A stretch of 64,000 nt of DNA from Photorhabdus thracensis (GTDB lineage Bacteria > Pseudomonadota > Gammaproteobacteria > Enterobacterales > Enterobacteriaceae). The position numbers were made by a program, and so were the translations under genes. The stretch lies in assembly GCF_001010285.1 (NCBI RefSeq), contig NZ_CP011104.1:1302001-1366000 (forward strand), in the 5' to 3' direction. Below, piece after piece: positions 5,912-24,723 of the stretch; the stretch's first letter is position 1, and each line of letters starts with the position of its first letter. The notes beneath the pieces are model-generated. The model worked only from the letters and a program-made list of their open reading frames with translations. It ran no database searches and had not been told where the DNA came from.

Positions 5912-7465
5912 ATGATAAAATCAGTATTAATAGTTGGTGGTGGTACAGCTGGTTGGATGACGGCGGCTTATTTATCGAAAGCATTCGCTCAAAATGTCGA
6001 TATTACAGTTTTGGAATCGAAGAGAGTAAAAAAAATAGGTGTGGGAGAGGCAACATTCAGTACAGTCCGTCATTACTTTGATTATCTTGGTTTAGATGAA
6101 AGTGAATGGTTAGCTAAATGTGCGGGAAGTTATAAATTAGGGATTAGATTCGAGAATTGGGATGGTCAAGATAATCATTTCTATCACCCCTTTGAACGTT
6201 GGGAAACAGTTAAAGGCTTTCCCATTTCTGAATGGTGGTTAAGAAAAAGTACGACAAACCAAGGTTTTGATTATGCGACTTTTTTGACACCTCACCTTTG
6301 TGAGGCTAAACGATCTCCTAGAAGACTAGATGGTTCGCTTTTTGCTCAATCTTCTGATAAATCGCTTGGTCAATCAACATTAGCAGAACAGCGGGCTCAG
6401 TTCCCATATGCCTATCATTTTGATGCAGACGAAGTTGCGAATTTTCTCAAACGTTATGCAATGAATCGAGGTGTTAGCCATATAGAAGATGATGTTACCC
6501 ATGTAGAAATTGATGAGAACGGAAACATTGGGCATCTGGAAACAAAAATACGTGGAAAACTTAAGGCTGATCTCTATATTGATTGTACCGGATTCAAAGG
6601 ATTATTAATTAACCAAGCATTGAATGAACCATTTGTTAGTTTCTCTGATGTATTGAAAAACAACCGCGCAGTAGCATTAAGAGTATCCAGAGAGGACACT
6701 CGTGATATTGAACCGTATACAACCGCTCGTACTATGTCTAATGGATGGCGTTGGACAATCCCTTTATATAAAAGAAATGGTTATGGGTATGTATATTGTG
6801 ATGAATATCAAAGCCCTGAAGAAGCCGAAGCTGAACTAAGAAGATCAATTCCATATGAAAACGCAGATTGTGCGGCAAATCATATTAGAATGAGAATTGG
6901 TCGTAGTAACCGTTCTTGGGTGAAGAATTGTGTCGCTATTGGATTATCAAGCGCATTTGTTGAACCTTTAGAATCAACTGGAATTTTTTTCATTCAACAT
7001 GGAATTGAACAACTCGTTAGATTCTTTCCAAGAAGTAGCAGTAATGAACTACTAATTGAAGAATATAACACACGAGTTAATCGCGTCGTTGATGGTGTTA
7101 AAGAGTTTCTGCTGCTTCATTTTTCGCTGGCACAGCGTAATGATACTTTATACTGGAAAGAATGGAAAAATATTGAATTACCTAAAGAGCTCTTAAAAAA
7201 AATAATGTTAGCTAAGGATCATTTATTGGATAAAGAGACTATCTATCCTTTCTATCACGGCTTTGAAGAATATTCGTGGAATACAATGATCTTAGGGTTG
7301 AGTTCAGGCTCATTAACTAGCAAACCAGCATTATCATTAATGATACCTGATAAAGCGGATGAAATATTATTACAACATCATGTTAAAGCCAAAAAAATGG
7401 TAAGTGGCTTACCAACATGTCATGAGTATTTGCAATATCTACATAATTCAGAAGATAGAAACTGA
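5912..7465 (+). CDS. Flavin-dependent tryptophan halogenase, PyrH (tryptophan 5-halogenase)-like
   Basis: The 517-residue protein belongs to the FADH2-dependent tryptophan halogenases. It has the FAD motif GGGTAGW at 9-15, the catalytic Lys75 in SYKLGIRFENW, the halogenase motif GWRWTIP, and the catalytic Glu354 in FVEPLESTGIFF. Lys75 and Glu354 have the numbering I recall for PyrH, and long stretches (for example GVGEATFSTVRHYFDYLGLDE) read almost like PyrH, so 5-halogenation of free tryptophan is the best guess. Regiochemistry from sequence alone is not secure. FADH2 must come from a flavin reductase elsewhere. It is the first gene of the cluster, 606 bp before the Qnr-like gene and on the same strand, and probably supplies chlorotryptophan to the NRPS. 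Confidence 0.9.
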   Translation: MIKSVLIVGGGTAGWMTAAYLSKAFAQNVDITVLESKRVKKIGVGEATFSTVRHYFDYLGLDESEWLAKCAGSYKLGIRFENWDGQDNHFYHPFERWETVKGFPISEWWLRKSTTNQGFDYATFLTPHLCEAKRSPRRLDGSLFAQSSDKSLGQSTLAEQRAQFPYAYHFDADEVANFLKRYAMNRGVSHIEDDVTHVEIDENGNIGHLETKIRGKLKADLYIDCTGFKGLLINQALNEPFVSFSDVLKNNRAVALRVSREDTRDIEPYTTARTMSNGWRWTIPLYKRNGYGYVYCDEYQSPEEAEAELRRSIPYENADCAANHIRMRIGRSNRSWVKNCVAIGLSSAFVEPLESTGIFFIQHGIEQLVRFFPRSSSNELLIEEYNTRVNRVVDGVKEFLLLHFSLAQRNDTLYWKEWKNIELPKELLKKIMLAKDHLLDKETIYPFYHGFEEYSWNTMILGLSSGSLTSKPALSLMIPDKADEILLQHHVKAKKMVSGLPTCHEYLQYLHNSEDRN

Positions 7466-8071
7466 TAATAGATAAAAAAACTGGCGCCTAGTTGTATTAA
7501 GCAAGTGTAAAATCTTGCTGAAAAATAATATTAATTAAGATTAAGTTTAATTATCCAGATAGCCTGAATAATATTAAAAAGTCATTAATAAAGTCTTTAT
7601 ACGGCATTTAGAGTGTCGGTAATCTAAGGGCGGTAGCTTACCAAGAGAAAGGCAAAGTGTCAGATAAGTTCTCATTAGTTATACAGCCCAATGTGTTTAG
7701 CCACTTCACAGTGTATTTAGTCGTTATTAATTCTTGCTAGGTTGGCTGTGTATTAGCCGGGGTATCATAAGCTCGATTTTTTAGGACTTTTTTATTTTAT
7801 GGTGAATTGATTTACTCACTTTCGTTTGGTACAAAATACAGTATCAGGAGAATGGTGGTGAGCTGTGGTATTTATGAGTTCCTTCAATTTATTCAATACA
7901 TCCCTCTCAAATTGATGTATATATAGATAATTGAGAAGGGTGATAAGATAATGGATACGGGGTTGAGGATTTCATTGGAAAATCATTTATCAAAACTTGC
8001 TTTTGTCATGCAGTTTATGGCCTGGGGAGTGTATTAATCATTATGAATCATCGCATTTGAGAAGTTTTAAT
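7466..8071. other. Intergenic region between halogenase and pentapeptide-repeat genes
   Basis: About 600 bp without a supportable ORF or RNA. It is long for an operon gap, so the pentapeptide-repeat gene probably has its own promoter here. I see no clear operator, repeat or terminator. Confidence 0.45.
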
Positions 8072-8827
8072 ATGTTTGAATATACGTTGGATATTTCGGA
8101 AACAACCGGTGTCATTGAAGGTAGAAAATTTAATAAGTTGGATTGGAGTAATGAGTATCAACCAGACTTGATATTTAAAAACTGTGTTATCACTGATTCG
8201 AAATTTTCAAGTGCAGATTTAAAGGGTTTGCGGTTAAAAAATTGTCAAATATTTAACTGCGACTTTAGTGAAACGAATATTTCAAATGGTGAATTTGAGA
8301 ATACATTATTTTATAATAAAGAGAGTCAAAAAGGCTGTGATTTTCATAGTGCAAAATTATGCCATTCGAAGTTTGTTTGTTGTGACATTTCAACAAGTAA
8401 TTTTTATCGTTCTGAGTTATTCGATATAACAATAGATAGATGTCAGGCTCAGGGGTGTCATTTTGAACTTGCTGACTTTACGAAAATAGTCAGTCGAAAA
8501 GTGATATTCAGTTCAGCAACATTAATAAAATCGAATTTTAAGTATTCAGACTTTGAAGGGGTATATCTTAAAAAGTGCGATTTGTCAGGAAGCAATTTAG
8601 TTTCAGTCGTATTGTCAAGAGTAAACCTTGAAGGTGCAAACTTAACCAATACCATTTTTTCTCCATCACGGTATGATGGGATGTCAATATTTAAAGCTGA
8701 TCTGAGAAATGCAGAGATTTCTAACATAGATGTGAGAACATTAGATTTTTCTGGAGTTGAAATATTTGAATGGCAAATGATCCCTCTGATGGAAGAGATG
8801 GGATTTATCATTCACCCAGATAATTGA
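8072..8827 (+). CDS. Qnr-like pentapeptide-repeat protein (probable gyrase/topoisomerase protection)
   Basis: The protein is about 251 residues from the ATG at 8072, chosen because GAGAAG lies 8 bp upstream; an in-frame TTG at 7997 would add 25 residues. It is built of pentapeptide repeats with central Phe/Leu (SKFSSADLKGLRLKN, SDFEGVYLKKCDLSGSNL). It resembles Qnr proteins beyond the repeats. The segment FYNKESQKGCDF sits where Qnr has loop A, TKIVSRKVIFSSA corresponds to the loop B region, and the end LDFSGVEIFEWQ matches the Qnr C-terminal turn and dimerisation helix. Qnr proteins bind type II topoisomerases and relieve quinolone poisoning; relatives AlbG and McbG protect antibiotic producers. 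Inside this cluster it is best read as self-resistance, though a free-standing chromosomal qnr is possible. Confidence 0.8.
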   Translation: MFEYTLDISETTGVIEGRKFNKLDWSNEYQPDLIFKNCVITDSKFSSADLKGLRLKNCQIFNCDFSETNISNGEFENTLFYNKESQKGCDFHSAKLCHSKFVCCDISTSNFYRSELFDITIDRCQAQGCHFELADFTKIVSRKVIFSSATLIKSNFKYSDFEGVYLKKCDLSGSNLVSVVLSRVNLEGANLTNTIFSPSRYDGMSIFKADLRNAEISNIDVRTLDFSGVEIFEWQMIPLMEEMGFIIHPDN

Positions 8828-23928: not shown

Positions 23929-23988
23929 TTAAATTATCTTGCTAATGATACGAATTATTTATTGATATTTATTTTATTGAGGTCGTTT

Positions 23989-24723
23989 ATGAGAATTAAA
24001 ATTATTGTTCCTCTGTTGACATCAAAATATAATTCAGCAGTACAAGAGGATATTGCTCCCTATATTGCACCGGATGTATCTGTTACCGTTGTTAATTTAG
24101 ATTTTGGTTCACCTTCGATCGAGTCCCGTTACGATGAAATGTGTTCAACCCCTGATATTGTCAGCAAAATCGTCGAGTCTGAAAAGGAAGGATATGATGG
24201 CGTCTTCGTTAGCTGTGTAAGCGATCCAGCTATTTCTGTTGCAAGAGAGCTAGTTGATATTCCTATCGTTGGTGGATTTGAGCCTGCTGCGTTAAGTGCT
24301 GGAATGATTTCGAAGCGTTGGGGAATTATTACAATTACCCAGTCCTGCGCATGTTTGATTAGAGACCTTGCGACTCTGGCTGGTATTCACCAGCAGTTGG
24401 CCTGTATTCGTAGTATTAATCAACCTATTGACGAATTGCACCAAGCACCAGGAAAGCTAGAAGAGGTGCTACTTGCTCAGATTAAAAAGATGGTGAGTGA
24501 AGACCGTGTAACAGCCATCGTCTTAGGTTGTACCGGGATGATGGGAATGGCGAAGTACCTGTCCAGAGAAATGGAGACAGTAGGAATGCCAATCCAAGTA
24601 ATTGACCCTTCAGCAGTTGCATTGGGCTATCTACAAATGATGATAAGAGCCGGGCTCACGCATAGCCGATTGGAGTACCCGAAGCTGGATTTAAGGGAAA
24701 GAGATATGAGTTGTGTTAAATGA
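23989..24723 (+). CDS. Hydantoin racemase / Asp-Glu racemase superfamily protein
   Basis: The 244-residue protein has the two catalytic cysteines of the cofactor-independent racemase superfamily, in GVFVSCVSDPA and LGCTGMMGM, with the VGGFEPA and PVQVID-like (IQVIDPSA) segments of the hydantoin racemase (HyuE) branch. These enzymes invert a stereocentre by two-base proton transfer. As the last gene of the cluster it may provide a D-amino acid or epimerise a hydantoin- or carbamoyl-type intermediate; the second is attractive next to a carbamoyltransferase but remains a guess. An in-frame codon at 23962 would add nine hydrophobic residues. The ATG at 23989 has TTGAGG upstream and is preferred. 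Confidence 0.75.
   Translation: MRIKIIVPLLTSKYNSAVQEDIAPYIAPDVSVTVVNLDFGSPSIESRYDEMCSTPDIVSKIVESEKEGYDGVFVSCVSDPAISVARELVDIPIVGGFEPAALSAGMISKRWGIITITQSCACLIRDLATLAGIHQQLACIRSINQPIDELHQAPGKLEEVLLAQIKKMVSEDRVTAIVLGCTGMMGMAKYLSREMETVGMPIQVIDPSAVALGYLQMMIRAGLTHSRLEYPKLDLRERDMSCVK

What the first reader, a model, noticed from the sequence alone, without database searches (positions are those of the whole stretch)
5912..24723. Uncharacterised halogenase-NRPS-carbamoyltransferase cluster
Eight plus-strand genes combine a PyrH-like tryptophan halogenase, a Qnr-like protein, a two-module NRPS with a fused acyl-CoA dehydrogenase, a thioesterase, a NodU-type carbamoyltransferase, an SGNH-like protein, an MFS exporter and a hydantoin-racemase-like enzyme. 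I cannot match this set to a named Photorhabdus or Xenorhabdus product. The parts predict a small chlorotryptophan-derived, possibly dehydrogenated and carbamoylated dipeptide.
Basis: partly seen in the sequence, partly recalled or inferred. Interest (0 to 1): 0.88.

Follow-up and report, generated by a model that had tools for sequence, protein, structure and literature searches.

The report
Speirobactin gene cluster, cut by IS256
This is a gene cluster already published as the likely source of speirobactin, a chlorinated antibiotic that hits bacterial DNA gyrase, here interrupted by a jumping gene that cut its main enzyme in two.

Summary
Liang et al. 2025 (PMC12406682) assign it to speirobactin. 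Their Table 2 lists this copy's broken synthetase and its IS256 transposase in Photorhabdus thracensis DSM 15199 at 1,311,013-1,318,398 and 1,318,422-1,319,624: window 9013-16398 and 16422-17624 plus 1,302,000. Speirobactin is a chloro-dehydrotryptophan/N-carbamoyl-asparagine diketopiperazine, not detected in this strain. The "thioesterase gene" is the synthetase's own last domain, cut off by a 1,297-bp element with an 8-bp duplication.

Three points go beyond the parts of that paper I saw. (1) X. szentirmaii DSM 16338, a reported producer, has one PF04820 halogenase, inside this cluster; XszenFHal, characterised from that strain without a known role, chlorinates tryptophan at C5. The paper's atom numbering, as I read it, puts chlorine on C6. 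(2) Gene H (function unclear in print) travels with carbamoyltransferases: 6 of 11 H-like places in 8 distant genomes. (3) At this site relatives keep an intact pentapeptide gene among remnants (2 of 12) or only G+H (2 of 12).

The parts
5912..7465 (+). Gene D, flavin-dependent tryptophan halogenase, PyrH-like
   Evidence: PF04820 457.8 bits; best solved match PyrH, 697.9 bits; WRWTIP, K75 and E354 present (their catalytic roles recalled)
7997..8827 (+). Gene E, Qnr-like pentapeptide-repeat protein, proposed self-protection; true start probably ATG near 8072
   Evidence: PF13599, PF00805; NCBIfam Qnr model 161.2 bits, below its cut-off of 240; role from PMC12406682
9013..16398 (+). Gene F1, truncated synthetase: acyl-CoA dehydrogenase, linker with partial condensation-like stretch, A1, T1, C, A2, T2
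   Evidence: same coordinates and length as F1 of PMC12406682
16358..16365 (.). Target-site duplication, left copy (8 bp)
16366..17662 (+). IS256-family element (1297 bp) with imperfect inverted ends (19 of 30 positions) and transposase 16422-17624
   Evidence: gene L of PMC12406682
17663..17670 (.). Target-site duplication, right copy (8 bp)
17638..18480 (+). F2, severed thioesterase domain of the synthetase (the paper starts its frame at window 17722)
   Evidence: PF00975; 99% and 81% identical to the synthetase C-termini in T327 and X. szentirmaii
18658..20430 (+). Gene G, NodU-type carbamoyltransferase
   Evidence: PF02543 and PF16861; solved relatives NovN (decarbamoylnovobiocin carbamoyltransferase), GdmN, TobZ (name NovN recalled)
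20459..22591 (+). Gene H, SGNH-like protein, proposed carbamoyltransferase partner
   Evidence: motifs and conservation; neighbourhoods
22696..23928 (+). Gene I, MFS exporter of Bcr/CflA type
   Evidence: PF07690; TIGR00710 189.8 bits, just under its cut-off of 200.9
23962..24723 (+). Gene J, hydantoin-racemase-like enzyme; true start probably ATG near 23989
   Evidence: PF01177; best solved matches hydantoin and allantoin racemases

Best explanation
This is the speirobactin biosynthetic cluster of Photorhabdus thracensis DSM 15199, disabled by an IS256-family insertion. Proposed working order in an intact copy: D chlorinates free tryptophan, most likely at C5; the two-module synthetase F joins chlorotryptophan and asparagine; its fused acyl-CoA dehydrogenase oxidises the Calpha-Cbeta bond of the tryptophan thioester; the terminal thioesterase releases the dipeptide as a diketopiperazine; G, helped by H, puts a carbamoyl group on the asparagine side-chain amide; J racemises the asparagine alpha carbon, perhaps on the ring rather than on free aspartate; I exports; E shields gyrase. 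Shown in print: the product, its gyrase target, co-occurrence with the cluster in four producers, non-detection in this strain. Shown here: gene identities, IS boundaries, the same A-domain specificity residues as in two reported producers. Inferred: every assignment of an enzyme to a step, C5 chlorination in vivo and the G-H partnership.
For: Exact coordinate agreement with F1 and L of Table 2. Protein identity to producer T327 90-99% over D-J; identical specificity positions in A1 and A2 in the window, T327 and X. szentirmaii (one position read). IS with exact 8-bp duplication between T2 and TE. Chemistry of every enzyme class fits the published structure.
Against: Neither the paper's text that I read nor this work reports a gene knockout: the product-cluster link rests on co-occurrence and chemistry. 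The A-domain codes gave low scores for Trp and Asn in the paper. The paper prints A1 as DYWQIGFIDK, this copy and two others read DVW....
Confidence: 0.92

Rival explanations
1. An uncharacterised cluster making a different chlorinated dipeptide.
Against: Same genes, 90-99% identity to producer T327 and the same specificity positions; the paper lists this locus.
Confidence: 0.03
2. The chlorine is on C6 as the paper's numbering implies, and the halogenase orthologue acts there in the cell, or XszenFHal is not the cluster enzyme.
For: NMR assignment by authors who had the spectra. Several solved C6 halogenases (5hy5) and related enzymes score 550-575 bits against D, so the clade is mixed.
Against: XszenFHal chlorinates C5 and the one PF04820 match in its strain is the cluster's gene D, 87.5% identical to the window's D; both closest solved enzymes are called 5-halogenases; the HMBC list in the text fits 5-chloro at least as well (my reading).
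Confidence: 0.4
3. G and H are a separate module with its own role, next to but not part of speirobactin synthesis.
For: Intact G+H without D, E, F, I, J at the same site in G393 and G394, dN/dS between the two 0.105 (G) and 0.133-0.164 (H); H-like proteins beside carbamoyltransferases in other settings.
Against: Speirobactin carries a carbamoyl group and no other carbamoyltransferase is in the cluster. Remnants in G392 and G138 show that larger versions stood at this site, so G+H may be what is left after loss, and part of the low dN/dS may predate it.
Confidence: 0.25
4. The split synthetase still works here, with the severed thioesterase acting as a separate protein, and the strain makes speirobactin under other conditions.
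For: The thioesterase frame is open with GWSFG and GHH motifs.
Against: Speirobactin was not detected in this strain by HRMS.
Confidence: 0.07

Closest known systems
Speirobactin cluster of P. temperata He86/K122, P. tasmaniensis T327, X. szentirmaii DSM 16338 (PMC12406682)
   Same: Same genes D, E, F, G, H, I, J; this copy is itself listed in the paper.
   Different: Synthetase cut by an IS256 element between T2 and TE; genes A-C of He86 were not seen between 5421 and 5912, where only 490 bp separate D from the preceding frame.
XszenFHal, tryptophan 5-halogenase of X. szentirmaii DSM 16338 (PMC6823310, passages)
   Same: The only PF04820 match in that strain's held genome is gene D of its speirobactin cluster, 87.5% identical to the window's D.
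   Different: The deposited XszenFHal sequence was not at hand, so identity is inferred; that paper found no clear metabolic role.
Oxyvinylglycine (gvg, PNP-1) clusters
   Same: A carbamoyltransferase together with an SGNH protein and a protein of about 700 aa without a known domain (PNP-1 table and gvg text; passages only).
   Different: No synthetase or halogenase named there; homology of GvgC or Pnp1C to H was not tested, no sequence was at hand.

Membership tests
Speirobactin biosynthetic cluster | Synthetase ACAD-A-T-C-A-T-TE in one protein | tested here: not met
   All domains present, but the TE is severed by an IS; the paper files this same locus as an interrupted homologous cluster, so I call it a broken copy of the cluster
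Speirobactin biosynthetic cluster | Genes D, E, G, H, I, J flanking F in this order | tested here: met
Speirobactin biosynthetic cluster | A-domain specificity residues as in producers | tested here: met
   Same in the window, T327 and X. szentirmaii (one position)
Speirobactin biosynthetic cluster | Makes speirobactin | not testable with these tools
   Not detected in DSM 15199 according to PMC12406682
Tryptophan 5-halogenase (PyrH type) | Closest to PyrH, with catalytic Lys and Glu and WxWxIP | tested here: met
   residue roles recalled
Tryptophan 5-halogenase (PyrH type) | Chlorinates C5 | not testable with these tools
   Reported for XszenFHal, probable orthologue; printed numbering of speirobactin reads as C6
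Qnr proteins | Score over NCBIfam's Qnr cut-off | tested here: not met
   161.2 bits against 240: Qnr-like, not Qnr
Aspartate racemase (paper's label for J) | Closest solved relatives are aspartate racemases | tested here: not met
   The 5 matches are hydantoin/allantoin racemases and epimerase OpaE
IS256 family | Family transposase, terminal inverted repeats, 8-9 bp duplication | tested here: met
   NF033543 404.7 bits; ends and 8-bp duplication; typical duplication length recalled
SGNH/GDSL hydrolases (gene H) | Catalytic Ser, Asn and Asp-x-x-His blocks | tested here: met
   Invariant in 5 of 5 aligned H proteins; which residues are catalytic is recalled
SGNH/GDSL hydrolases (gene H) | Family profile match or SGNH fold | tested here: inconclusive
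   GDSL profile E 0.12; structure model unusable, mean pLDDT 34.2

The most novel reading that the evidence does not exclude
Speirobactin carries chlorine on indole C5, not C6, so the published structure needs a check: its halogenase is the orphan enzyme XszenFHal, a proven tryptophan 5-chlorinase. Its rare N-carbamoyl-amide is installed by a two-protein device, a NodU-type carbamoyltransferase plus a dedicated SGNH partner (gene H), which occurs well beyond this cluster.
Probability: 0.45. Interest if true: 0.55.

Novelty: already known. Interest (0 to 1): 0.35.

Why it matters
The cluster is published. What could matter is the link between two separate papers: an orphan C5 halogenase gains a likely natural product, and a 2025 antibiotic structure gains a reason to have its chlorine position re-measured. 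The recurring pairing of gene H with carbamoyltransferases gives a testable role to a protein left blank in print. Relatives that keep the pentapeptide gene without halogenase or synthetase look like strains with immunity but no production.

Tried and rejected
Structure prediction of gene H from 3 close sequences failed (mean pLDDT 34.2), so no fold search was run. A pyrrole route (dehydrogenase acting on prolyl carrier protein) was considered: solved prolyl dehydrogenases match the dehydrogenase domain well below the best acyl-CoA dehydrogenases (88-89 against 141 bits), and the published product has no pyrrole. The named-genome scan found only 2 loci; its peptide patterns came from one sequence, so it is no measure of spread. 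A profile of H in 392 genomes of the family found only this genome and G361, both of the genus, and only 5 of the 12 genus genomes were in that draw. The identities of pieces F1b and F1d came from out-of-frame queries and were replaced. Controls: PF04820 rings in 5 of 14 control genomes, so a family match alone is weak, but the X. szentirmaii match covers 442 of 458 positions; PF16861 rings in 1 of 14. The order of A1 and A2 substrates was not settled; A1's code looks glutamine-like from recall only, which would put asparagine first.
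Full report
WHAT IS THERE. The window lies at 1,302,001-1,366,000 of a single 5.15-Mb contig. Nine + strand open frames of 250 aa or more fill 5912-24723. Family searches name a tryptophan halogenase (D), a Qnr-like pentapeptide protein (E), a synthetase with acyl-CoA dehydrogenase, A, T, C, A and T domains (F1), an IS256 transposase (L), a thioesterase (F2), a NodU-type carbamoyltransferase (G), a protein without a significant Pfam or NCBIfam match (H), an MFS exporter (I) and an Asp/Glu/hydantoin racemase family enzyme (J). Gene letters follow PMC12406682.

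IT IS PUBLISHED. A paper search gave PMC12406682 (Liang et al., Antimicrob Agents Chemother 2025). I read its outline and abstract, sections 5, 6, 13 and 16, and passages; figures and supplement were not seen. Speirobactin (C16H14N5O4Cl) is a diketopiperazine of chlorinated dehydrotryptophan and side-chain-carbamoylated asparagine, isolated as both (6R) and (6S) forms, with DNA gyrase as target. Table 2 gives, for P. thracensis DSM 15199, F1 at 1,311,013-1,318,398 (2461 aa), L at 1,318,422-1,319,624 (400 aa) and F2 at 1,319,722-1,320,480 (252 aa). Adding 1,302,000 to window 9013-16398, 16422-17624 and 17722-18480 gives exactly these numbers. So the window is that strain's chromosome (name inferred from this match) and the cluster is the copy the paper describes as interrupted. 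The paper reports speirobactin from P. temperata He86 and K122, P. tasmaniensis T327 and X. szentirmaii DSM 16338, but not from DSM 15199. The cluster assignment itself is stated there as a hypothesis from co-occurrence and gene content.

THE INSERTION. The element spans 16366-17662 (1297 bp), with imperfect inverted ends (19 of 30 positions) and an exact 8-bp direct duplication on both sides (a 12-bp part of the arms was first seen). In T327 (L004) and X. szentirmaii DSM 16338 (L005) the synthetase is one frame of 2717 and 2722 aa.

SAME PRODUCT EXPECTED. Protein identities to T327: D 96, E 95, dehydrogenase-linker 97, A1T1 96, C 95, A2T2 96, TE 99, G 95, H 90, I 94, J 90%. To X. szentirmaii: D 88, E 77, dehydrogenase-linker 67, A1T1 82, C 72, A2T2 83, TE 81, G 92, H 79% (I and J lie beyond the stretch held). 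The A-domain specificity positions agree in all three (one position of X. szentirmaii read): A1 DVWQIGFIDK, A2 DIWYVGACSK, placed by recalled GrsA numbering with the final Lys assumed. The paper prints A1 as DYWQIGFIDK; I do not know the source of the one-letter difference.

THE HALOGENASE LINK. PMC6823310 (passages only) reports XszenFHal, a tryptophan 5-halogenase from X. [quoted passage not shown] A search of the genome holding L005 finds one PF04820 match, at G399:C1:2190826-2192202, which is gene D of the cluster (contigs under 3 kb are not held in that collection). Its best solved relative is PyrH (693 bits; next enzyme 599, also called a 5-halogenase). The text of the speirobactin paper contains none of the words XszenFHal, PyrH, 5-chloro or 6-chloro, and the 3 papers naming speirobactin and the 8 naming XszenFHal in the held library do not overlap. 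XszenFHal is therefore most likely the speirobactin halogenase. Numbering the paper's atoms in sequence (N-15, C-16 as C7a, C-17, C-18) puts the chlorine, on C-18, at indole C6. The HMBC list in section 5 (H-17 to C-16 and C-21; H-20 to C-21; H-19 to C-17; H-17, H-19 and H-20 to C-18) can also be read as 5-chloro, with the isolated proton as H-4: H-4 to C7a, H-7 to C3a, H-6 to C4 and H-7 to C5 are then three-bond couplings, while 6-chloro makes H-20 to C-21 and H-17 to C-16 two-bond couplings and leaves the expected H-4 to C7a unlisted. Both readings need some two-bond couplings. This is my reading of a text list that may be selective. Against it: the authors had the spectra, and an enzyme's choice in vitro need not hold in the cell.

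GENE H. The paper leaves H without a function. An alignment of five H proteins keeps GES (109-111), GNN (175-177), D384 and H387 invariant although two rows are only 24% identical to the window's. Those two sit beside carbamoyltransferases in other settings: Streptomyces sp. NBC_01431 plasmid NZ_CP109497.1, directly after a transferase and next to asnB (transferase 49% identical), and G361 contig 5, directly after a 45-46% identical transferase amid genes unlike this cluster's. A profile search of 369 genomes of the class found H-like stretches in 8 genomes besides this one, at 11 places, all of which I fetched; 6 places, in 6 genomes, have a NodU-type transferase within 2 kb of the matched stretch, three on the same strand and three divergent. 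The 5 other places do not: 2 are further copies in G642, and 3 lie in G477 and G664, fragmented assemblies whose one transferase is on another contig. These 8 genomes hold 12 transferases in about 29 Mb, so by my arithmetic about 0.03 neighbours within 3 kb would be expected by chance. The profile was built from transferase-linked proteins, which may favour such hits. H is best explained as a partner in carbamoyl transfer; how it acts is open.

WHAT RELATIVES KEEP. Orthologues of the pentapeptide gene (83% or more) are in 4 (own, G398, G392, G138). In G392 the site holds a pentapeptide frame without stops, a transferase lacking an internal stretch, and fragments of H and J; in G138 it holds a pentapeptide gene open from its ATG (251 aa; the TAG reported lies before that ATG) and scraps of the dehydrogenase part. 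In G393 and G394, of genes D-J, only G and H were found, both intact, H twice in G394. Between G393 and G394 dN/dS is 0.105 for G and 0.133-0.164 for H; for E, G392 against the window, it is 0.098. The other 6 genomes were not inspected at the site. Gene K and rsmC stand beside the site with and without the cluster, so K, listed as part of the cluster in print, is more likely core genome.

RACEMASE. The 5 solved matches of J are hydantoin or allantoin racemases and the epimerase OpaE, none called an aspartate racemase. I suggest that J racemises the diketopiperazine or a ring precursor, which would fit the isolation of both enantiomers; this is inference, and the paper proposes aspartate instead.

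VERDICT. Already known, described in print from this very genome. Interest rests on two loose ends: the chlorine position and the role of H.

Noticed in passing
G392 (L027 5209-5976) and G138 (L075 8191-8955), same chromosomal site: Pentapeptide gene kept open and under purifying selection (G392 against window dN/dS 0.098) although the halogenase is absent and the synthetase absent or reduced to scraps: immunity without production?
   Followed up: partly
G393 (L030 7149-11075) and G394 (L028 12531-19087): Only G and H of the cluster stand at the site, intact; H is doubled in G394.
   Followed up: partly
L021 (NZ_CP109497.1, locus 4071-25700): Streptomyces plasmid cluster with two synthetase genes, ATP-grasp, asnB, carbamoyltransferase, H-like protein and lysine 2,3-aminomutase; product not identified here.
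   Followed up: no
L022 10369-18731 (G361): Small operon-like run after a carbamoyltransferase and H-like pair, including methyltransferase-like and unknown frames.
   Followed up: no
window 25159-25380: Two tRNA-Leu(CAG) genes just right of the cluster, a possible integration site.
   Followed up: no
window 9995-10012 relative to A1, protein residue 983-988: A1 reads FDVAIW here and in two relatives, while the paper prints the A1 code as DYW...; one letter differs.
   Followed up: partly
L005 816-3692: Long RHS-repeat-like open frame upstream of the cluster in X. szentirmaii (seen by eye, no family search).
   Followed up: no
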